DNA of 64,000 nucleotides from Mycolicibacterium fluoranthenivorans (lineage in GTDB: Bacteria; Actinomycetota; Actinomycetes; Mycobacteriales; Mycobacteriaceae). Of the stretch, positions 322 to 33,885 are shown piece after piece. The first letter of the stretch is position 1, and every line of letters begins with the position of its first letter. Below the pieces are notes generated by a model. It saw nothing but the letters and a program-made list of their open reading frames with translations, was not told the origin of the DNA and searched no databases. The position numbers and the translations under genes were made by a program. Location: NCBI RefSeq assembly GCF_011758805.1, contig NZ_JAANOW010000001.1, forward strand, positions 2,666,001 to 2,730,000, in the 5' to 3' direction.

Positions 322-1980
322 TCAGGCAGCCGCCGCGGCGGTTGAAGTGCTGTCCTTGGCGGCCGCCGGTGTGGTGGATTCCGCGGTGGTGCTGGGGGTT
401 TCGGGCTTCGATTCAGGTGTGGTGTCCGGTTTGGCGGCGGGCTGGGTCTGTGCTTCGGTGCCGGTCTTGGTGGTGCCGGAGGTGGTGCCGTGCTTGCCGG
501 TCACGGTGTCGTGGAACTGACGTACCAGCTGGGCCAGCGGCGCGGAGCCGATCGGCCCACGCACCTTGGGCCGGGGTGTGACGGGCGTGCTCGGCGGCTC
601 GGTCTTGGTGTCGGTGGTCTCCGGGGTCTCGGTCTTCTTGTTGTCGCCGGGATCAGTGGCCTCGGTCTTGTTGTCCACCAAGGTTTTCGGGGTTTCCTGG
701 GTGTCCTTCTTGGCGGTCGCCAGGTTGGTCGCCAGGTTGGTCGCCAGGTTGGTCGCCGTGGTGGTCGTCGTGGTGGTCGCTGTGGTGGTCGCCGTGGCAT
801 TCGCCGCGGCCAGGTTGGTCGAGGTGACCGGCGCGGGCTTTGGCGGCGCTTTGATGCCGATATCGGCGAGGGCGGCCTTGACGCCTTCGCCGAGGGCCTT
901 GACGATATCGCCGGTGAGCTTGACGGGATTGATGTTGAGCGGGATCAGCCGGAAGGGGGCCGGCACGCCGGGGCTGAGGGTGCGGTCGTACCCGGTGTCG
1001 ATGAGCACGCGCAGGACCGGTTCGAGCAGGTCCACGATCGGCTTGACGATGAAGCTGGTGTGGGTGAACCCGCCGAATTCCAGGAACGGCCGGACCAGCG
1101 GCAGCGTCTTGGTGGGGATGGTGATGTAGCGGGTGTCGCCGTAGTCGCTCCAGTTGGCCTGGTTGTCGAGTTCGGCTTTCAGTTCGTCTTCGGTGTACCC
1201 GTCGGGTAGTTCGTTGGGACCGGTGCGGCCATTGGGTGCCAGGTAGCTGCCGTGCACGTACCAGAAGCCGGCCAGGGCGTTGAGGGTGGCCAGTGCGTTG
1301 AGCGGATAGAGCGGGAAGTCGGATACGCCGTCGTATTCGAACGCGATATCGGTGGCGCAGCGCTCGTCACAGGTGTTGGTCGGCGCGGGCAGGCCGAAGG
1401 TGGCGTCCAGGATCGGTACGTGCCCCAGGAGGGCGAGCCGTTCGAACAGTCCGCCGTTGGGCCGGTTGGTGTTCCCGATCATCACGAATGAGATGGCGTC
1501 CGGATTGGCGCCCAGGTCGCCGAGATTGCGCTTCTCGCGGCTGACGATATTGCCGCCCTGCGAGTACCCGAAGATGACGATCGGGGTGTTCGGTGTTCCG
1601 GGTGGCGTCGGATGCAGTGTCCCGTCGAGGGTGGATTCGAGAGTGGCCAGGCCCTTACCCGTCGACACATCCCACTTGGCGCCGCTGAGGCCGCCCCACC
1701 CGGCCAGCGGGATGGGCCAGAACTGTGCCGGGTAGTCGATGGGTTTCACCGTGCAGTCGGTCGACGTGCTCGAGCACGACGGTGTGTAGGGCGCGACGTA
1801 GTAGTCCAGTGCGTGGGCGATGTAGTTGTCCACCTTGGTCGCATCCGGGACGCCGGTGCCGGGCACCAGGAGCACGGTCGCGGCCAGGGCGACGGCCATG
1901 CTCATCGTCGCACCGATGGCGACGAACACGGCCGTCAGCAGCGCCAGCACGGTCAGTACGGATCGTTTTGCGATATCCAT
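322..1980 (-). CDS. Exported PE-PPE-domain serine hydrolase with low-complexity tail
   Basis: The protein has 552 residues. Residues 8-38 form a hydrophobic signal or anchor segment, so it is probably exported. Residues 35-370 form an alpha/beta-hydrolase domain of the PE-PPE C-terminal type (PF08237-like), starting LLVPGTG and with nucleophile elbow GYSQGG (Ser140). There is no PE or PPE module at the N-terminus. The last 170 residues or so are Thr/Pro/Ala/Lys rich, contain LATN repeats and look like a flexible wall-spanning or surface tail. An AAGGTGAG ribosome site precedes the ATG. Substrates are unknown; members of the family act as esterases on short acyl chains. It is transcribed away from the catabolic operon that starts at 2164. 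Confidence 0.8.
   Translation of the reverse strand: MDIAKRSVLTVLALLTAVFVAIGATMSMAVALAATVLLVPGTGVPDATKVDNYIAHALDYYVAPYTPSCSSTSTDCTVKPIDYPAQFWPIPLAGWGGLSGAKWDVSTGKGLATLESTLDGTLHPTPPGTPNTPIVIFGYSQGGNIVSREKRNLGDLGANPDAISFVMIGNTNRPNGGLFERLALLGHVPILDATFGLPAPTNTCDERCATDIAFEYDGVSDFPLYPLNALATLNALAGFWYVHGSYLAPNGRTGPNELPDGYTEDELKAELDNQANWSDYGDTRYITIPTKTLPLVRPFLEFGGFTHTSFIVKPIVDLLEPVLRVLIDTGYDRTLSPGVPAPFRLIPLNINPVKLTGDIVKALGEGVKAALADIGIKAPPKPAPVTSTNLAAANATATTTATTTTTTTATNLATNLATNLATAKKDTQETPKTLVDNKTEATDPGDNKKTETPETTDTKTEPPSTPVTPRPKVRGPIGSAPLAQLVRQFHDTVTGKHGTTSGTTKTGTEAQTQPAAKPDTTPESKPETPSTTAESTTPAAAKDSTSTAAAAA
721..756. repeat. Three tandem 12-bp repeats in the hydrolase tail
   Basis: The 12-mer CAGGTTGGTCGC occurs three times head to tail and encodes the LATN repeats on the minus strand. 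Diverged 12-mers of the form CGTGGTGGTCGT continue to about 793 and encode a Thr-rich run. The unit is a multiple of three, so gain or loss of copies would change tail length without a frameshift. Confidence 0.85.
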
Positions 1981-24594: not shown

Positions 24595-24957
24595 ATGATT
24601 CACGACCCTGAGGCGTTCGTCCATCTGTGTGCCGCGCAGGAGTGGGAAACCGCGCAGCGGGCGGGTGAACATCGCCCGTCTTCGTTGGAGGAAGTGGGCT
24701 TCGTTCATCTTTCCGCACCTGAACAGGTGCATCTGCCCGCCAATCGGCTGTACGGCGGTCGCACCGATTTGGTGTTGCTGAGTATCGACCCGGCTAAGTT
24801 GGCCGATCCGGTGCGCTGGGAGCCGGGCGTGCCGACCGATCCGGAATCGATGCTCTTCCCGCATCTGTACGGGCCGCTCCCGGCGACCGCTGTGACGAGT
24901 GTCACCCGATACCTGCCTGCTGCCGACGGGCGGTTTGCTGAGTGGCCCGCGCGATGA
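24595..24957 (+). CDS. DUF952 protein
   Basis: The 120-residue protein matches the DUF952 family, with FVHLCAAQEWETAQRAG, GFVHLSAPEQVHLPANR and a C-terminal LFPHLYGPLPATAVTSV. The two HL motifs are the family signature. DUF952 proteins are related in fold to glutathione S-transferase-like or ADP-ribose-binding proteins, but no activity is established. Its stop codon overlaps the start of the SDR gene (ATGA), so the two are translationally coupled. Confidence 0.8.
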   Translation: MIHDPEAFVHLCAAQEWETAQRAGEHRPSSLEEVGFVHLSAPEQVHLPANRLYGGRTDLVLLSIDPAKLADPVRWEPGVPTDPESMLFPHLYGPLPATAVTSVTRYLPAADGRFAEWPAR

Positions 24958-25757
24958 CGGGCGGGCCAGTCGCGGTGGTGACCGGTGCCAGTAGGGGTGC
25001 CGGCCGCGGTATCGCGGCGGCGTTGAGCCGCCATGGCTGGCGGGTGTACGCCACCGGCCGGACCATCTCGCAGGCCCCGCCGGGCGGTGTCGCGGTGCGG
25101 GTGGACCACGCCGACGACGATGCTGTCGCCGAGTTGTTCGCGCGAGTCGATTCGGCCGAGGGCGGGCTCGATCTGCTGGTGAACAACGCCGCCGTCGTCC
25201 ACGATGAGCTGACCGGTTCGAAACCCTTCTGGGAGAAGCCCGTCGGTCTCGGTGATGTCCTCGACGTGGGCCTGCGGTCGGCGTATGTCGCGTCCTGGCA
25301 TGCGGCGCCACTGTTGGTGCGGCGTGAGCGTGGGCTGATCGCGTTCACCTCGTCGCCGGGTTCGGTCTGTTATATGCACGGCCCCGCGTACGGCGCGCAG
25401 AAGGCCGGCATCGACAAGATGGCCGCCGATATGGCCGTGGACTTCCGCGGTACCGGGGTTGCCTGTGTGTCGATCTGGATGGGCATCCTGTTGACCGAGC
25501 GATTCCGTGCCGCGTTCGACGGTCATCCCGAGGCCCTGGCGAAGACGGCCGCGCACGCGGAGACCCCGGAGTTCACCGGCCATCTGATCGACGCGCTCTA
25601 CCGTGATCCGGACCTGGCCGATCTCAGCGGGCACACCCTGATCGGTGCCGAGCTCGCACAGCGCTACGGCATCACCGACGAGGACGGCAGAAGGCCGCCG
25701 TCGCACCGCGAAATGCTCGGTGAGCCGCGCGAACCCAGCGCGGTGGTGATCCGCTGA
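24954..25757 (+). CDS. Short-chain dehydrogenase/reductase
   Basis: The 267-residue NAD(P)-dependent oxidoreductase has the Rossmann TGASRGAGRG motif at the N-terminus, NNAAV, a catalytic Ser near SSPGSV, and the YGAQK active-site Tyr-Lys pair. The ATG overlaps the DUF952 stop. Its C-terminal part is close to SDRs with a conserved LIGAELAQRYGITDEDGRRPPS end. The substrate is unknown. Confidence 0.85.
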   Translation: MTGGPVAVVTGASRGAGRGIAAALSRHGWRVYATGRTISQAPPGGVAVRVDHADDDAVAELFARVDSAEGGLDLLVNNAAVVHDELTGSKPFWEKPVGLGDVLDVGLRSAYVASWHAAPLLVRRERGLIAFTSSPGSVCYMHGPAYGAQKAGIDKMAADMAVDFRGTGVACVSIWMGILLTERFRAAFDGHPEALAKTAAHAETPEFTGHLIDALYRDPDLADLSGHTLIGAELAQRYGITDEDGRRPPSHREMLGEPREPSAVVIR

Positions 25758-25818: not shown

Positions 25819-26607
25819 GTGGCCATACTGTCGGGTTTCGCGCCGTGGATCGTCTACTGGGTGCTGGTCGGGAATGTCCCGTTCGGGGTGGCCGCCCTGG
25901 CCGCACTCGCGGTCGCGGTGGCGTCGTCGGTGGTGAGCCGGATCAGGGGAGTCGCCTGGCGCACGCTCGAGATCGGCGCCCTCGCGGCGTTCGTGGTTCT
26001 GGCGGTGCTCACCGTCACCGTGAGCGAGGTATTTCTGGAGCGCTGGATCCAGCCGCTGAGCACCGCCGCCCTCCTGGTCGTGGCGCTTGCCGGGGCGCTG
26101 GCCGGGCGACCGTTCGTGCGGGAACTCGCCGAGGCCGATCAGGCGCCCGAGGTGCGCAAGAGTGATCTGTTCGGGCCGGTCACCACCAGGATCACCTGGA
26201 TCTGGGTCGGCGCCTTCGCCGCCATGACGGTGTCGGCGGCCATCCCGCCGATCGTGTCCGACAACGCCGGCATGCTGGACGCCGGGACACCGTTGTCCTA
26301 TCTCTGCTACTGGGTGGTGCCGTTCGTCGTGTTCGGTGCCGCCGTGGTGGCCGCGCGGGCACTGACAGAACAGCTGATCGCCGAGGCGACCAGTCCGCAC
26401 ACCGTGCGGAAGACCACGTTCGTGGCGTTCAAGGAATTGGAGATCGATCAGCTGTACTACCTGGCCAGGGAGAAGGCCGATCGTGAGGCGGGCGCCGAGA
26501 TGGAGGCCTACGACGTGAAGCTGGGTTCCCAGGGCGTGCCACTGACCGGTGATGAGTCCCGCGAGTCGTGGCCTGCCTCATACAAATTGCGGCCACGCAG
26601 ACACTGA
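25819..26607 (+). CDS. Polytopic membrane protein of unknown function
   Basis: The 262-residue product starts with GTG. It has about six hydrophobic segments: FAPWIVYWVLVG, the Ala/Val helix after it, IGALAAFVVLAVLTVTV, LSTAALLVVALAGAL, WIWVGAFAAMTVSAAIPP and YLCYWVVPFVVFGAAVVAA. A soluble C-terminal 70 residues follow. It resembles conserved mycobacterial integral membrane proteins without known function. It follows the SDR gene after 61 bp. Confidence 0.65.
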   Translation: MAILSGFAPWIVYWVLVGNVPFGVAALAALAVAVASSVVSRIRGVAWRTLEIGALAAFVVLAVLTVTVSEVFLERWIQPLSTAALLVVALAGALAGRPFVRELAEADQAPEVRKSDLFGPVTTRITWIWVGAFAAMTVSAAIPPIVSDNAGMLDAGTPLSYLCYWVVPFVVFGAAVVAARALTEQLIAEATSPHTVRKTTFVAFKELEIDQLYYLAREKADREAGAEMEAYDVKLGSQGVPLTGDESRESWPASYKLRPRRH

Positions 26608-26741
26608 CGCGGCACCTCTCCTGTCAGTTTGCTGGGAGTCGGTACGCATGGGCTACCCGCCGGCGCCACCGATCTCCGATAATTCAGCGTCAGCACCGTC
26701 GATTTGGGTCCTCCCAATTCGTTCTACCGAGCAGAGGATCC

Positions 26742-29700
26742 ATGGCGCGTCGAGCACGACACCGGTCCACGCGTCAACGCTCCGGCGGGCGCCGGGAACC
26801 CTTTGCCTGGCTCGGCGCCGGGGCCGTGACGTTAGGGGTGGGCGCGGCACTGGCCGCCGGCCCGGCCGTGGCGCGCGCCGATGACACGAGTTCATCGTCG
26901 GCGTCATCTTCGGCCACGTCATCGTCAGCCACGACGGGCGCCTCGACCACGTCGACCACGTCCGGTGTGGCCGAGACGAGCCGGCCCACCTCCGTTCATG
27001 TGTGGCACCTGCCCACCCTGGGCGTGCCGAAGAAGCCGCACCATTCCGCGCATTCGGGCAATCCGTCTGCTGACGCGGCGGCGACTCCGAAGACGTCGGC
27101 AGGGTCCACCGCCGCGGCGGATACCCCTTCGGCGCCACCCGCCCGGCACGGCGAGACCGCGGCTGAGCAGGACGCGCTCGCGCCGGCGCGCCCGGTTCCG
27201 GCTGCGGCGCCCACGGAAGTGGCCGCGGTACGGGTGAATTCGGTGACGCCACACGTCGTTCCGGGGTTGACGCAGACGTTCCGCGCCGTGGTGCGCGCCT
27301 TGACGGCGCCGTGGACCGCGAGTGGGTCGGGCCGCGGTACGCCGGCGGAGTCGCCCGCGGTGTGGGTGCTCGCCGCGGCCGCTCGCCGCCAGGTCGGGGC
27401 GACCGAGGACGCCGTCGTCGCACCGGCCGCGGCCACCGCGACCGTCAGTGCGCTGGCGGTGGCGACCGCCAATGCCGATCCGGTGTTCGGCACGGCCATG
27501 GTGGGCACGCCCAACAGCAGCACCGGGGTGGTGACCGGGAAGGTCGTCGCCACCGACGCCGACAAGGACACGCTGACCTATACCGCCGCCGCGCAGAGCA
27601 CCGCGGGCGGCACCGTGGTGCTCAACTCGTCCACCGGGACCTTCACCTACACCCCGACCACCGCTACCCGGCATGCGGCCGCGGCCATCGGTGCGACGAC
27701 GGCCACCTCCGACACCTTCACCGTCGAGGCGTCGGACGGCAACGGCGGCAACGCAACCCAGACGGTCACCGTGAAGGTGGCACCGCTCAACACCGCGCCG
27801 GTGCTCGCCGCGACACAGGTGGCCGGCGCGGTCACCGCCACCGATGCCGACGGTGACACGTTGACCTACACCGCGACACCCACGAAAGGCGCCATCGCCT
27901 TCTCGTCGACGGGTGCGTTCACCTACACCCCGACCGCGGCAGCCCAGCACGCCGCGGCCGCCACCGGGGCGTCGTCCTCGGTGAAGACCGACACCTTCAC
28001 CGTCACCGTGTCCGACGGCTACGGCGGCACGGTGGCAACCAAGGTGACGGTGACGATCACCCCGGCCGATACGGCCCCGGTCATCAGCACCATCCCGACC
28101 GCGAGTGCACCGAACGCCGCCACCGGTGTCGTGACCGGCACGGTCGCCGCCACCGACGCCGACAACGACAAGCTGACCTATGCGGCCACCGCGGCCAAAG
28201 GCACCGTCAGCATCAACTCCGGCACGGGCGCGTTCACCTACACCCCGACCGCCGCCGCCCGGCACGCCGCGGCCTCCGATACCGCCACCGACGCCGACAA
28301 GTCCGACACCGTGACGATCACCGTGTCCGACGGCCACGGTGGCACCGTCACCAGCGCCGTCGACGTGACCGTTGCCCCGAGGGACAGTGCGCCGAAAGTC
28401 TCGGCCACCGTGGGCAGTCCGAACTCGGCGACCGGAGTGGTGACCGGCACGATCAAGGCCACCGACGCCGAGAAGGACACCGTCGTCTACAGCGTGACCA
28501 CTGCCACCGCCAAAGGCACCCTCACGCTGGACGCGAGTTCCGGGGCGTACACCTACACCCCGACCACCGACGCGCGCCTGGCCGCCGCGGCCAAGGGTGC
28601 CGGCACGGCCGACAAACACGACACCTTCACCGTTGCGGTCGACGACGGTCACGGCGCCACGGTCACCAAGACCGTCACGGTGTCGGTGTCCCCGTTGGGG
28701 GATAAGCCGGTCGCGGGCACCCCGAGTGTCGGCTCGGCAGACTCGACCGGAACCGTCACCGGCACAGTCGAATTCACCGAGCCCTACACACAGCTGCCGC
28801 TGACCTACGCGGTCACCACGGCGACCACCAAGGGCACGATCACCCTGGATGCGGTCACCGGTGAATTCACCTACACCCCGAACACCGTCGCCCGCCTGGC
28901 CGCGGGAGTCTCGACCACACCGGTCACCGACAAATTCACCGTGAGCGCCGCGAATTCGATCACCTCGACCGCCGAGACCGTCACCGTGACCGTGGCCCCC
29001 GCCGTGCTCGGGGTCACCGACGGCACCGGCACGGGTGGTACCCCGTTCGTCCGGACCAGCACGCTCAGCCCCGACGGTAAGACCGCCTATGTCGCGAACG
29101 CGAGCGCGGGCACGGTGTCGGTCACCGACATCGCGAGCAACGCCGTCACCGGAACCATCACGGTCGGAAAGAACCCCGGCGCCATCGCCGTGAGCGCCGA
29201 CGGTGCCACCGTCTATGTCGCCAACGCGGGTTCGGGCACCGTGTCGGTGATCAACACGGCCACCGACACCGTCATCAAGACCATCAGGGTGGGCAGCACG
29301 CCCTCGGGGCTGGCGCTGCGGCTCAACGGCAGCAGGCTCTATGTCGCCAATGCGGGTTCGGGCACGGTGACGGTGATCAACACCGCGACCAGGATCGTCA
29401 CCAAGACCATCAGGGTGGGCAGTGCACCGGTCGGGCTGGCGATCAGCGCCGACGGGAGCGCGCTCTACGTCACCAACACCGGCGCCGACTCGGTGTCGGT
29501 GATCAACGCGGCCACCAACAGGCTGGCCGTCACCACCGGACTCGGTGTCGCGGTCGGCACGCTGCTCAGCGGCTCCGGTGCCACCCTCTCCGTCACCAAC
29601 GGCGTCGACACACCGGTCGCGGGGACTATCACGGTCGGCACGCCCAGCACGACCACCGGTGCGGTCACCGGCACCGTCTCCTACACCGACCCGTCCGGAA

Positions 29701-30716
29701 AGACGTTGACGTACAAGGTGATCACCGCGCCGACCGACGGCACGGTGAAGGTGACGTCGACCGGTGCGTTCACCTACACCCCGACCGTCGCCGCCCGCCT
29801 GGCCGCCGCCCTGACCGGTGGCAGCACGGACACGTTCACCGTGGTGGCCACCAACGGCTTGGCGACGACCGCCCAGACCGTCACCGTGCCGGTCTCGGCT
29901 GAGGTCAATGCGTCAGTCGCGCTGAAGATGGTCTACGGCACCGAGCCGGTGATCCGCATCTCGGTCAATGGTGGGCCGAGCGTGCCGGTGCTGGTCGACA
30001 CCGGATCCGTGGGACTGGTGATCACCTCCAAATATGTCGGGACACAACAGGACCTGGGTACCTCGACAGGATCGGGAGCCAGCGGATACTCCGGTGGGCT
30101 GAGCTACACCTTCGACACCTACACGACCACAGTGGATTTCGGTAACGGTATCGTCTCCGGGCCCACCTCGGTCGATATCGTCAGTGCGGCCTCACAGTCG
30201 GCGTTCGCCTCGTTCGCCGCCCGCGACGGCGTGGTCGGCATCCTCGGTATCGGGCCGAATTCGTATGGGCCGGGCCCCAGTTCGGTGATCTCCGCGCTGC
30301 CAGGCGACCTGAACTACGGCGTGCTGATCGACGAGCAGGACGGTCTGCTGGAATTCGGACCCAACCCGCGGTCGGCTCTCGTGACGCTCAGCGGGTCACC
30401 CTGGACGACGCTGGAGGTGCAGGTCGGCACGGGGGTCGTCACGCAGGTGTTCACGGTGATCGATTCCGGCGGCGTCTACGGCACCATCCCGTCGTCGCTG
30501 GTCGGGGGAGGGTCGAGCGTGGCCGTCGGCACGGTCATCAGGGTCTACACGAGCGACGGCGCGACGTTGCTGTACTCGTACACGACGACGTCCGGGAACC
30601 GTCCGACCGTCACGTCGGACACCTACATGAACTCCGGTACGGCGCCGTTCGCGCTGGGGCCGATTTACATCTCCTATACGGGATCCAGCGCGGGCCAGAC
30701 GATCTTCGACGTCTAG
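26742..30716 (+). CDS. Secreted repeat protein with YVTN propeller blades and PecA-like aspartic protease domain
   Basis: The 1,324-residue protein begins with an Arg-rich signal sequence (about 1-45, ending AVARADD). A Ser/Thr/Ala-rich linker follows to about residue 245. Five cadherin/VCBS-like Ig repeats (about 247-755) each carry TDAD and FTYTPT motifs. Four YVTN beta-propeller blades (about 765-935) and one more Ig repeat (about 955-1055) come next. The last 265 residues form a pepsin-like aspartic protease domain: Asp1086 in LVDTGSVGL and Asp1241 in VIDSGG, with ILGIGPN and LEFGPNP as in PE_PGRS35/PecA of M. tuberculosis. No PE domain is present. It may cleave proteins at the cell surface. 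The ATG at 26742 is chosen because the signal peptide starts there. Confidence 0.82.
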   Translation: MARRARHRSTRQRSGGRREPFAWLGAGAVTLGVGAALAAGPAVARADDTSSSSASSSATSSSATTGASTTSTTSGVAETSRPTSVHVWHLPTLGVPKKPHHSAHSGNPSADAAATPKTSAGSTAAADTPSAPPARHGETAAEQDALAPARPVPAAAPTEVAAVRVNSVTPHVVPGLTQTFRAVVRALTAPWTASGSGRGTPAESPAVWVLAAAARRQVGATEDAVVAPAAATATVSALAVATANADPVFGTAMVGTPNSSTGVVTGKVVATDADKDTLTYTAAAQSTAGGTVVLNSSTGTFTYTPTTATRHAAAAIGATTATSDTFTVEASDGNGGNATQTVTVKVAPLNTAPVLAATQVAGAVTATDADGDTLTYTATPTKGAIAFSSTGAFTYTPTAAAQHAAAATGASSSVKTDTFTVTVSDGYGGTVATKVTVTITPADTAPVISTIPTASAPNAATGVVTGTVAATDADNDKLTYAATAAKGTVSINSGTGAFTYTPTAAARHAAASDTATDADKSDTVTITVSDGHGGTVTSAVDVTVAPRDSAPKVSATVGSPNSATGVVTGTIKATDAEKDTVVYSVTTATAKGTLTLDASSGAYTYTPTTDARLAAAAKGAGTADKHDTFTVAVDDGHGATVTKTVTVSVSPLGDKPVAGTPSVGSADSTGTVTGTVEFTEPYTQLPLTYAVTTATTKGTITLDAVTGEFTYTPNTVARLAAGVSTTPVTDKFTVSAANSITSTAETVTVTVAPAVLGVTDGTGTGGTPFVRTSTLSPDGKTAYVANASAGTVSVTDIASNAVTGTITVGKNPGAIAVSADGATVYVANAGSGTVSVINTATDTVIKTIRVGSTPSGLALRLNGSRLYVANAGSGTVTVINTATRIVTKTIRVGSAPVGLAISADGSALYVTNTGADSVSVINAATNRLAVTTGLGVAVGTLLSGSGATLSVTNGVDTPVAGTITVGTPSTTTGAVTGTVSYTDPSGKTLTYKVITAPTDGTVKVTSTGAFTYTPTVAARLAAALTGGSTDTFTVVATNGLATTAQTVTVPVSAEVNASVALKMVYGTEPVIRISVNGGPSVPVLVDTGSVGLVITSKYVGTQQDLGTSTGSGASGYSGGLSYTFDTYTTTVDFGNGIVSGPTSVDIVSAASQSAFASFAARDGVVGILGIGPNSYGPGPSSVISALPGDLNYGVLIDEQDGLLEFGPNPRSALVTLSGSPWTTLEVQVGTGVVTQVFTVIDSGGVYGTIPSSLVGGGSSVAVGTVIRVYTSDGATLLYSYTTTSGNRPTVTSDTYMNSGTAPFALGPIYISYTGSSAGQTIFDV
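27478..29010. repeat. Five Ig-like repeats of about 300 bp
   Basis: Each unit encodes GxVTGTVxATDADxDxLTY, then GxFTYTPTxAARHAAA, then DTFTVxVSDGxGGTV. The units are diverged at the DNA level. A sixth copy lies at about 29600-29910, after the YVTN blades. Confidence 0.75.
29088..29510. repeat. Four YVTN beta-propeller repeats of 126 bp
   Basis: YVANASAGTVSV, YVANAGSGTVSVIN, YVANAGSGTVTVIN and YVTNTGADSVSVIN recur every 42 residues. The middle two are nearly identical at the DNA level (TATGTCGCCAA starts at 29214 and 29340). Four blades are fewer than the usual seven. Confidence 0.8.
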
Positions 30717-30924
30717 ACCGACCGTGGCCGGCAAACGGGGTGCGGCGAAGGCCGGTTAGCCCACGCGGGGACCGGCGAATGTTTGCGTGTACATCCAGCG
30801 GCGGGAGGCTTACATTCGAGATGGCGCGTGAAGGGTCTGACTGATCCGAGAGCCGACTTCGCGTGACTTCCCTGAGCGGCTCAGCCCGTCACAGCCGAAT
30901 ATCGGATCGGCGGAAGGAACGGCA

Positions 30925-31317
30925 ATGTCAGAGGAACAGGACAACATCGAACTCGTCACCAGGGGCTACCAGGCCTTCGCCAGCGGCGACTTGGAGGCCG
31001 TGATGGCGTTGTTCGACGACAGCATCGAGTGGGTGCAGCCCGGCAACAGCACGATCAGCGGTACCTACCACGGCAAGGGTGAGCTGGGTCAGTACCTGGC
31101 CAGGCTGGGCGAGAAGAGCCCGACGGTGACGATGAACAAACTGCTCGCCGACGGAGACACGGTGGTGGCGCTCACCGAGGTCGCCGCCGCCGGTGAAAAG
31201 GCGCGCGACGCCGAAGTTTTCACCATTCGCGACGGAAAGACGATCCGGGTGGTGGTACATACCGATACCGCGATGATGGAGCGCGTCTACGGCTCCAAAC
31301 AGCACGCGGCCCACTAG
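30925..31317 (+). CDS. SnoaL/NTF2-like protein
   Basis: The 130-residue protein belongs to the NTF2-like (SnoaL) superfamily. The N-terminal helix IELVTRGYQAFASGDLEAVMALFDDSIEWVQPG and the strand EVFTIRDGKTIRVVVHTDTAMM are typical of the cone-shaped ligand-binding fold. GGAAGGAAC lies before the ATG. It stands alone after a 208-bp gap and convergent to sigA. No substrate or partner can be named. Confidence 0.8.
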   Translation: MSEEQDNIELVTRGYQAFASGDLEAVMALFDDSIEWVQPGNSTISGTYHGKGELGQYLARLGEKSPTVTMNKLLADGDTVVALTEVAAAGEKARDAEVFTIRDGKTIRVVVHTDTAMMERVYGSKQHAAH

Positions 31318-31330
31318 AACGGCGAATGGC

Positions 31331-31351
31331 CGCCACCCCAACCGGGTGGCG
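31331..31351. terminator. Bidirectional hairpin between the SnoaL-like gene and sigA
   Basis: CGCCACCC and GGGTGGCG form a perfect 8-bp stem with a CAACC loop. The hairpin lies in the 57-bp gap between the ends of two convergent genes and could serve both. Confidence 0.65.
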
Positions 31352-31374
31352 ACCATGTCGTCGTTCTCGCGAAC

Positions 31375-32808
31375 CTAGTCCAGGTAGTCCCGCAGCACCT
31401 GCGAGCGGCTGGGGTGGCGCAGCTTGCTCATCGTCTTGGACTCGATCTGGCGGATGCGTTCCCGCGTCACGCCGTAGACCTGCCCGATCTCGTCGAGGGT
31501 GCGGGGCTGACCGTCGGTCAGACCGAAGCGCAGCCGGACCACACCGGCCTCGCGCTCGGACAGCGTCTCCAGCACCGACTGCAGCTGATCCTGCAGCAGG
31601 GTGAAGCTCACCGCGTCCACGGCCACCACGGCCTCGGAGTCCTCGATGAAGTCACCGAGCTGTGAATCGCCCTCGTCGCCGATGGTCTGGTCCAGGGAGA
31701 TCGGCTCACGCGCGTACTGCTGGATCTCCAGCACCTTCTCCGGCGTGATGTCCATTTCCTTGGCCAGCTCTTCGGGCGTGGGCTCGCGGCCCAGGTCCTG
31801 AAGCAGCTCGCGCTGGATACGGCCCAGCTTGTTGATGACCTCGACCATGTGCACCGGGATACGGATGGTGCGGGCTTGGTCGGCCATGGCGCGGGTGATG
31901 GCCTGGCGGATCCACCAGGTGGCGTACGTGGAGAACTTGTAGCCCTTGGTGTAGTCGAACTTCTCGACCGCGCGGATCAGACCGAGGTTGCCCTCCTGGA
32001 TCAGGTCCAGGAACGCCATACCGCGGCCGGTGTAGCGCTTGGCCAGCGACACCACCAGACGCAGGTTGGCTTCCAGCAGGTGGTTCTTGGCGCGGTCACC
32101 GTCGCGGCAGATCCACTGGTAGTCGCGGCGCTGCGCGGTGGTGAGCTTCTCGCCCTTCTCGGCGAACTCCACCATCAACTGGGTGCAGTACAGCCCGGCC
32201 TCGATGCGCTTGGCGAGCTCGACCTCTTCCTCGGCGTTGAGCAGCGCGACCTTGCCGATCTGCTTCAGATACGCGCGGACCGAGTCGGCCGATGCCGTGA
32301 GTTCGGCGTCCTTGCGGGCCTGGCGCAGGGCCTCGGATTCTTCCTCGTCCCAGACGAAGTCACCGGAGGCCTTGTCCTTCTCCGTCGGCTCCGGATGCTC
32401 CTCGTCGGCGGCCTTCACGGCCGGCTTGGCGCCCGGCACGACCACCGCGACGATCTCGACCTCGCCGTCGACCTCGGCGTCTTCACCGTCCTCGTCGCCG
32501 TCGGTGCTCTCGTCCGCGTCGTCGGTGTCGAGGTCGTCGTCGATCTCGACCTCCTCGACCTCGAGATCGTCGCCCGGCTCCGCCTCGAGATCGTCGGTCT
32601 CCAGATCCTCGGCGAGGTCTACGACGTCGGTATCGGGGTCGGGTGCGCCCGCAGCCTTGGCTGCGGCCTTCTTGGCGGGAGCCTTGGTTGCGCGCTTCGC
32701 GGGGGCCTTGGCAGCTGCGGCCTTGGCGGGAGCCTTTTTGGCAGGAGTCTTGGCGGCGGTGCGCTTCACCGGCTCGTCGGTTGCCGGGCTTGCTTTTGTC
32801 GCTGCCAC
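31375..32808 (-). CDS. sigA: Primary sigma factor SigA
   Basis: The essential housekeeping sigma factor, 477 residues. The N-terminus is rich in Lys/Ala/Pro ([10 protein letters not shown]) and then strongly acidic, as in other actinobacterial SigA proteins. Regions 1.2-2 ([29 protein letters not shown]), region 3 and region 4 ([19 protein letters not shown], ending SQVLRDYLD) follow. The GTG start at 32808 gives MAATKAS, as in M. tuberculosis, and GAAAGGG lies just upstream. Confidence 0.97.
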
Positions 32809-33004
32809 GTACACCCTTTCGGTCTTGCGGATTCCGGGGCGCACGCATGCGTCACCGGAAAGCGTCGGCTGTGTCGAATATCGGCGATGATCTCTGCTCG
32901 GAAACCCGCCGCTATTTCGGTAGGCGGCCGCCGTTGACCATTGTAACGACAGTGTGAGATACGGCTGCGCCGTGCGGCAAATTGGCCGTCCCGCGCGCGT
33001 CGCG

Positions 33005-33802
33005 TCAGGCGGTGCCGTGCGCCGTGTCGGCGGCCAGCGCGGCGCCGACGATGCCCGCCTCGTTGAGCAGGGTCGCGGCCACCACCGGGGTGCGGTTCTT
33101 CAGCAGCGGGATCCATTTGTCGGCCTTGCGGCTGATGCCTCCACCTGCGATGAACAGGTCCGGCCAGATCGCATTCTCGATGGCCACGAGCACCTTGGTG
33201 ACCTCTTCGGTCCAGCGCTCGTAGCTCCATTCCTTGCGTTCCTTCACCGAGGACGCGGCCCGGTGTTCGGCCTCCTTGCCGCCGACTTCCAGGTGGCCGA
33301 ACTCGGTGTTGGGCAGCAGCACGCCGTTGTGAATCACCGCCGAACCGATCCCGGTCCCGAACGTCAGCAGCACGATCACCCCGGTCTTGTCCTTGCCGGC
33401 GCCGAACCGGGCCTCGGCGATTCCGGCCGCGTCGGCGTCGTTGAGCACCGTCACGACCTGCCCGCCCAATTCGTTGCCGATGATCTCGGCGGCGTTGGCG
33501 CCGATCCAGCCCTTGTCCACGTTGGCCGCGGTGCGCACGATCCCGTCGGTCACCACACCCGGGTAGGTGACACCGAGCGGGCCGGTCCAGCCGAATTCGC
33601 GGACCACGGTGGCCACCGTCTTGGCCACGGCCTCCGGGGTGGAGGGCTGCGGCGTCAGGACCTTCACGCGATCGCCGATGAGGGCGCCGGTGTCCAGGTC
33701 GACGATGCCGCCCTTGATCCCGCTGCCGCCCACGTCGACGCCGAATCCGCGGCGTGGGGTGCTGCTACCGGCTTCGGCGGCGGGCGGTTCGGTGGCGGTC
33801 AT
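33005..33802 (-). CDS. ppgK: Polyphosphate glucokinase PpgK
   Basis: PpgK phosphorylates glucose with polyphosphate or ATP. The 265-residue ROK-family protein has the phosphate-binding [12 protein letters not shown] motif, GVTYPGVV, the catalytic Asp region [16 protein letters not shown], and [22 protein letters not shown] precedes the ATG at 33802. It is divergent from suhB with a gap of 50-80 bp, as in M. tuberculosis Rv2702/Rv2701c. Confidence 0.95.
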
Positions 33803-33885
33803 AGAACGCTCCTCGTACAAGGTCCGGCGGGTGCGACGCGCCACACACATTAGTGCCCCGAGACGTGCTGTGTTGCGATGGTCGA

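What the first reader, a model, noticed from the sequence alone, without database searches (positions are those of the whole stretch)
26742..30716. Secreted chimera of Ig repeats, YVTN blades and a PecA-like aspartic protease
The last 265 residues carry both catalytic motifs of a pepsin-type protease (Asp1086 in DTGS, Asp1241 in DSGG) and the ILGIGPN context of the protease domain of PE_PGRS35/PecA, which trims PE proteins in M. tuberculosis. Here the domain is fused to six cadherin/VCBS-like repeats and four YVTN blades instead of a PE-PGRS module. The fusion is seen directly; a surface processing role is inference. The N-terminal architecture suggests substrate choice by repeat or propeller binding.
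Basis: partly seen in the sequence, partly recalled or inferred. Interest (0 to 1): 0.75.

Follow-up and report, generated by a model that had tools for sequence, protein, structure and literature searches.

The report
PecA-type protease on signal-peptide repeat scaffold
A mycobacterium in which no PE_PGRS proteins (the known targets of the surface protease PecA) could be found still carries a well-kept PecA-type enzyme, apparently exported by an ordinary signal peptide and mounted on a long repeat stalk, so this enzyme family probably does more than trim PE_PGRS proteins.

Summary

It is no lone chimera: eight other sequences share the architecture, one named relative also the neighbourhood. 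The PE-trimming frame fits poorly: no PE_PGRS and no ESX-5 candidate was found in this genome, and 47 of 112 domain-bearing genomes of a genus sample are similarly PE-poor. Across the genus the domain sits on PE, PPE or signal-peptide N-termini; one clade of all PE/PPE forms is rejected (p-AU 0.0002). Repeat and blade numbers differ between close relatives, which suggests a spacer, not a substrate reader.

Best reading: an exported, stalk-displayed envelope endoprotease of the PecA family, PE_PGRS trimming being one specialisation. Activity, location and substrate are untested; a PPE68-like gene is present, and PPE68, reported as Pec-sensitive in M. marinum, remains a candidate. New variant of a known kind.

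The parts
26742..30716 (+). gene for the 1324-aa signal-peptide/VCBS/YVTN/PecA-type aspartic protease
   Evidence: relatives P0002-P0006 begin at the matching Met
26742..26879 (+). signal peptide, about residues 1-46 (basic n-region, RREPFAWLGAGAVTLGVGAALAAGPAVARA/DD)
   Evidence: read by eye; the same AWLGAGAVTLG type occurs in many relatives; no signal-peptide predictor was run
26880..27434 (+). Ser/Thr/Ala/Pro-rich linker, about residues 47-231
27435..29012 (+). five VCBS/Big_9/cadherin-like repeats, about residues 232-757
29058..29540 (+). four four-stranded YVTN beta-propeller blades, residues 773-933
   Evidence: TIGR02276 four stretches; AlphaFold model; VIA-align rows 1l0q, WDR5, 6r5y
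29541..29612 (+). decayed fifth blade / linker, about residues 934-957, mostly under pLDDT 50
   Evidence: motif LSVTNGV at 949; low confidence there
29616..29894 (+). sixth Ig-like (Big_9/VCBS) repeat, about residues 959-1051
29901..30713 (+). PecA-type pepsin-fold aspartic protease domain, residues 1054-1324
29997..29999 (+). catalytic Asp1086 (DTGS)
30462..30464 (+). catalytic Asp1241 (DSGG)
24942..25757 (+). neighbour: short-chain dehydrogenase-like gene, also upstream of the relative in L139
   Evidence: product recognised by eye
31375..32844 (-). neighbour: primary sigma factor-like gene, followed by a glucokinase-like gene (33005-33850, -); same order in L139
   Evidence: products recognised by eye

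Best explanation
The gene encodes a signal-peptide-exported aspartic endoprotease of the PecA type. The signal peptide takes it across the inner membrane; the linker, VCBS repeats and YVTN blades form a long, length-variable stalk that spaces the C-terminal pepsin-like domain away from its anchoring point in the cell envelope; the two Asp cut exported proteins of the envelope or the surroundings. PE_PGRS trimming, known for PecA, would be one specialisation of this domain in species that have ESX-5 and PE_PGRS. Shown here: architecture, predicted fold, conservation of the catalytic pair, lack of a PE or PPE domain in the protein, and that searches found no PE_PGRS and no ESX-5 candidate in this genome. 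Inferred: export, activity, final location, spacer role, substrates.
For: Domain and fold. Catalytic Asp pair in 170 of 170 full-length domains, whatever the delivery tag. No PE or PPE family among the Pfam matches of the window protein. Genome: one PecA domain; five PE-profile matches, of which two are plain PE genes, adjoining ESX-3-type and ESX-1-type eccC genes, and none of the five is a PE_PGRS; three EccC-type systems, the third without PE/PPE matches and with ESX-4-like neighbours. 112 of 297 genus genomes have the domain, 109 over the curated cut-off; 47 of those 112 have no PE match stronger than 1e-25. Stalk variability with a conserved protease. In the same genome, similar signal-peptide/VCBS/YVTN scaffolds carry M4 metallopeptidases (2) and a GH5-like hydrolase (1).
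Against: No activity, location or substrate data. The signal peptide was judged by eye and a rough script. How such a protein would cross the mycomembrane is unknown. PPE68, an ESX-1 substrate whose surface level rises in an M. marinum pecABC mutant (PMC9765416), has a likely homologue here, so a T7SS-linked substrate is not excluded. The relative in L139 has a frame break inside the protease domain, so the gene may be dispensable in some strains, or that assembly has an error.
Confidence: 0.6

Rival explanations
1. It still serves type VII secretion: it trims or degrades the few PE/PPE proteins of this species (ESX-1 PE35/PPE68-like, ESX-3 PE5-like and its partner) at the cell surface, as Pec proteases do for PE_PGRS proteins and, it seems, PPE68 in M. 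marinum.
For: A PE35-like/PPE68-like pair lies next to the split eccC of ESX-1 and a PE5-like gene beside eccC of ESX-3. PPE68 is more abundant on the surface of a pecABC mutant (PMC9765416 passages).
Against: PE matches are near-universal in the genus sample (288 of 297 genomes) but the protease domain is in 112 of 297, so most species handle their PE/PPE proteins without it. The PPE68 processing pattern was unchanged in that mutant.
Confidence: 0.25
2. It is a nutritional or scavenging exoprotease of a saprophyte, one of a set of hydrolases displayed on VCBS/YVTN scaffolds.
For: Sibling scaffolds in the same genome carry M4 metallopeptidases and a GH5-like domain; the domain is present in only some species.
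Against: The studied relative is a processing protease, and its authors report strongly reduced self-cleavage in E. coli or in vitro (PMC6819658).
Confidence: 0.25
3. It is catalytically dead and acts as a structural or adhesive surface protein.
For: No proteolytic activity was observed for the related PE_PGRS16 domain (as told in PMC6819658).
Against: Both Asp and the Gly of each motif (1088, 1243) are unchanged in 170 of 170 domains.
Confidence: 0.06
4. The fusion is an assembly or frame artefact.
For: None found; a repeat-rich gene could in principle be misassembled.
Against: Single open frame in a 3.7 Mb contig; same architecture in P0002-P0006, L108 and (partial) L111; same neighbourhood in L139.
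Confidence: 0.01

Closest known systems
PecA (PE_PGRS35, MMAR_2933; NCBIfam NF038019)
   Same: Homologous C-terminal aspartic protease domain (305 bits, cut-off 150), both catalytic Asp, C-terminal position behind a long repeat or linker region.
   Different: PecA has an N-terminal PE domain, belongs to the PE_PGRS proteins and is an ESX-5 substrate that cleaves PE_PGRS proteins and itself (PMC6819658); this protein has a signal peptide, VCBS repeats and YVTN blades, in a genome where no PE_PGRS and no ESX-5 candidate was found.
PE_PGRS16 (Rv0977) protease domain, PDB 4EHC
   Different: Carried by a PE_PGRS protein; no activity observed (PMC6819658).
YVTN propeller/PKD surface-layer protein of archaea, PDB 1L0Q
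   Different: The window protein has four intact blades and a protease domain.
M4 metallopeptidases on VCBS/YVTN scaffolds in the same genome (L100, L102)
   Same: Signal peptide, Big_9 repeats and propeller blades ahead of a protease.
   Different: Unrelated catalytic domain; signal peptides of another type (GRVGALAVALG).

Membership tests
PecA-type aspartic protease domain (PF20729 / NF038019) | profile score above the curated cut-offs | tested here: met
   332 bits against 33; 305 bits against 150
PecA-type aspartic protease domain (PF20729 / NF038019) | two catalytic Asp in DTG/DSG | tested here: met
   D1086, D1241; aligned Asp in 170 of 170 full-length domains
PecA-type aspartic protease domain (PF20729 / NF038019) | bilobed pepsin fold | tested here: met
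PecA proper (PE-domain-processing PE_PGRS protease) | N-terminal PE domain and PGRS | tested here: not met
   no PE or PGRS match in the window protein at E up to 1
PecA proper (PE-domain-processing PE_PGRS protease) | secreted by ESX-5 | tested here: not met
   no ESX-5 candidate among the EccC-type hits of the genome (model TIGR03928; ESX assignment from neighbours); signal peptide instead (by eye)
PecA proper (PE-domain-processing PE_PGRS protease) | cleaves PE_PGRS proteins and itself | not testable with these tools
   bench assay needed; no PE_PGRS among the five PE-profile matches of the genome
YVTN beta-propeller (TIGR02276, 1L0Q) | YVTN repeats above cut-off | tested here: met
   127.8 bits against 27.85, four stretches
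YVTN beta-propeller (TIGR02276, 1L0Q) | closed ring of blades | tested here: inconclusive
   four blades modelled; they overlay on part of larger propellers and on 6r5y, a ring of two four-bladed fragments

The most novel reading that the evidence does not exclude
PecA-type proteases began as signal-peptide-exported envelope enzymes and were later captured by type VII tags more than once (PE repeatedly, PPE once), so PE_PGRS trimming is secondary and the original substrates are to be sought in species without ESX-5, such as this one.
Probability: 0.4. Interest if true: 0.6.

Novelty: new variant of a known kind. Interest (0 to 1): 0.45.

Why it matters
The authors of the PecA study leave open whether its specificity goes beyond PE_PGRS or even ESX-5 substrates (PMC6819658 discussion). 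A species with a single PecA-type gene, and in which no PE_PGRS and no ESX-5 candidate was found, gives a simple background for that question. It also suggests that the database name 'PE domain-processing' is carried over too widely: the near-identical M. fluoranthenivorans protein P0002 bears that name, while the window's own genome offers no PE_PGRS to process. I did not examine the M. fluoranthenivorans genome.

Tried and rejected
Assembly artefact: rejected (independent relatives). Propeller or repeats as substrate reader: disfavoured by variable numbers. Plasmid-borne gene family: 1 of 72,556 plasmid records matches, a Mycobacterium riyadhense plasmid at 41.5% identity. RNA elements near the gene: 0 Rfam matches in 26000-32000 at gathering scores. 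Spread beyond mycobacteria: 0 of 24 out-of-genus relatives; 6 of 396 phylum genomes over the cut-off, all of this genus, and 2 of another genus below it; 18 of 401 family genomes over the cut-off, all of this genus, and 1 of another genus below it; but the control Deinobacterium chartae rings with PF20729, and L187 (Pseudonocardiales MAG, lipoprotein-like by eye) is a distant relative, so an older origin is not excluded. A first motif count by pattern gave other first hits in 20 domains; on an alignment all 170 have Asp/Asp, so the pattern had mis-picked. My first phmmer labels for Big_9/YVTN gave nothing and were replaced by blastp. Comparing PE-poor with PE-rich genomes for PE-tagged copies is partly circular, because a PE-tagged copy would make a genome PE-rich; only the presence of the domain in PE-poor genomes is used as evidence. 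Literature: among the titles and abstract starts listed I saw no paper on a PecA-type protein without PE (open-licence library only); PMC4758615 (passages) says the aspartic proteinase domain was only detected for PE proteins.

Full report
What is there. The window lies in a 6.41 Mb genome of a mycobacterium, to judge by its relatives: the closest named protein match is from Mycolicibacterium fluoranthenivorans (P0002, 98% identity over the protease domain), and 49 of the 50 named loci are mycobacterial. ORF 26742-30716 encodes 1324 aa. From the N-terminus: a signal peptide of about 46 residues (judged by eye), a Ser/Thr/Ala/Pro linker, five VCBS/Big_9 repeats, four YVTN blades, a decayed fifth blade, a sixth Ig-like repeat, and the protease domain at 1054-1324.

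PecA's PE_PGRS substrates were not found in this genome. The PE profile finds five places. Two are plain PE genes: one directly behind an EccC gene of ESX-3 type and one between EccCb and a PPE68-like gene, as in ESX-1. The other three are weaker; by eye they are WXG- or Esp-like proteins of type VII clusters, not PE_PGRS (L004, L005, L006). EccC-type hits (model TIGR03928) form three systems plus one hit that I take for FtsK and did not inspect. The third system has EccB-, MycP/EccD- and EccC-like genes around it and no PE match nearby, as in ESX-4. None is an ESX-5 candidate, which fits the published statement that ESX-5 is only present in slow growers (abstract of PMC4418733, seen in the listing). 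These ESX assignments rest on gene order recalled from general knowledge.

This is not peculiar to one genome. In a sample of 297 genus genomes the domain is present in 112 at E up to 0.001, 109 over the cut-off. Of those 112, 47 have no PE match stronger than 1e-25. I chose that threshold after seeing the distribution; at most 16 PE candidates per genome were scored, and some of the 47 are incomplete genomes. Of 33 full-length domains read from PE-poor genomes (27 genomes), 29 have another signal-peptide N-terminus, 2 are VCBS/YVTN, 1 is signal peptide plus PGRS and 1 (L017) is unclear; none is on PE or PPE, which is partly true by definition. PE-rich genomes give 38 PE, 7 PPE, 24 signal-peptide, 9 truncated and 2 unclear; 57 further domains had no genome of the sample to be sorted by.

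Delivery tags. Of 175 non-redundant domains in hand (all that the calls up to 45 brought in, not an even sample), the script labels 68 signal peptide with other linkers, 45 PE, 19 truncated, 14 signal peptide plus PGRS, 12 unclear, 9 VCBS/YVTN and 8 PPE. The signal-peptide label is a rough script; I checked by eye the 19 rows of the largest class that no motif class caught.

Trees. On the quick tree of 170 rows the eight VCBS/YVTN rows with a full-length domain are one clade (100), and all 43 PE and 8 PPE rows lie on one side of a branch (98, SH-aLRT); the other side holds 43 signal-peptide, 8 VCBS/YVTN and 2 unclear rows and the distant outgroup L187, while the PE/PPE side also holds 39 signal-peptide rows, some with PGRS. 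For a careful tree I took only rows labelled PE, PPE or signal peptide, dropped ten long or doubtful ones and thinned near-copies, which left 72. There the 24 rows of the signal-peptide side are again one side of a branch, but support is only 69/92. PPE rows are one clade (99/92), the tree needs at least 7 switches between signal-peptide and T7SS tags, and one clade of all PE and PPE rows is rejected (p-AU 0.00023; I chose the test after seeing the tree). Direction depends on the root: the only outgroup is a single very long branch, so 'signal peptide first' is a lead, not a result.

How it may work. By analogy with the published idea that PGRS modules carry C-terminal enzymes on the mycomembrane (PMC9436101 passages), the VCBS/YVTN stalk may do here what PGRS does in PecA. 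In the same genome, comparable scaffolds carry two M4 metallopeptidases and one GH5-like domain. The PE-PPE hydrolase domain PF08237 has six matches, none of them on a PE or PPE protein in the frames I read (L244 has no readable N-terminus in its frame). This suggests that enzymes known from PE/PPE proteins elsewhere are delivered by signal peptides here.

The main rival. In M. marinum a pecA-pecB-pecC mutant has more of the ESX-1 protein PPE68 on its surface, with an unchanged processing pattern (PMC9765416 passages). Since a PPE68-like gene is present here, trimming or turnover of ESX-1 or ESX-3 PE/PPE proteins is a real alternative. The PecA authors themselves leave specificity open (PMC6819658: passages and sections 6 and 14 read).

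Verdict. It is a new variant of a known kind, a near-identical protein being already in databases under a PecA name (P0002), and its main value is as a simple test case for what this protease family cuts when PE_PGRS proteins are absent.

Noticed in passing
L139:2082-5820: The relative in Mycolicibacterium sp. J2 has a frame break inside the protease domain: decay or an assembly error.
   Followed up: no
window 985-1752, minus strand (G000:C1:2666985-2667752, L243): A PF08237 'PE-PPE' hydrolase domain on a protein with a signal or membrane segment and no PE/PPE, one of six such matches in the genome.
   Followed up: partly
L029, L117, L133, L211, L214, L216, L217, L220: PPE proteins that end in the PecA-type protease domain; the seven of them on the careful tree are one clade. 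PMC4758615 says this domain was only detected for PE proteins.
   Followed up: partly
L105, L109, L161, L162, L164, L166, L167, L208, L209: Signal peptide plus long PGRS-like repeats plus protease, without a PE match, several in named Mycolicibacter species.
   Followed up: partly
L024, L042, L043, L060, L179: Short signal-peptide PecA-type proteins of about 400-460 aa encoded as tandem neighbours; L179 is from Mycolicibacter sp. MYC123.
   Followed up: no
NZ_OY970457.1:400109-400915: A PecA-type gene on a 473-kb Mycobacterium riyadhense plasmid.
   Followed up: no
L100, L101, L102: Large VCBS/YVTN proteins of the same genome carrying M4 metallopeptidase or GH5-like domains behind a GRVGALAVALG-type signal peptide.
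   Followed up: partly
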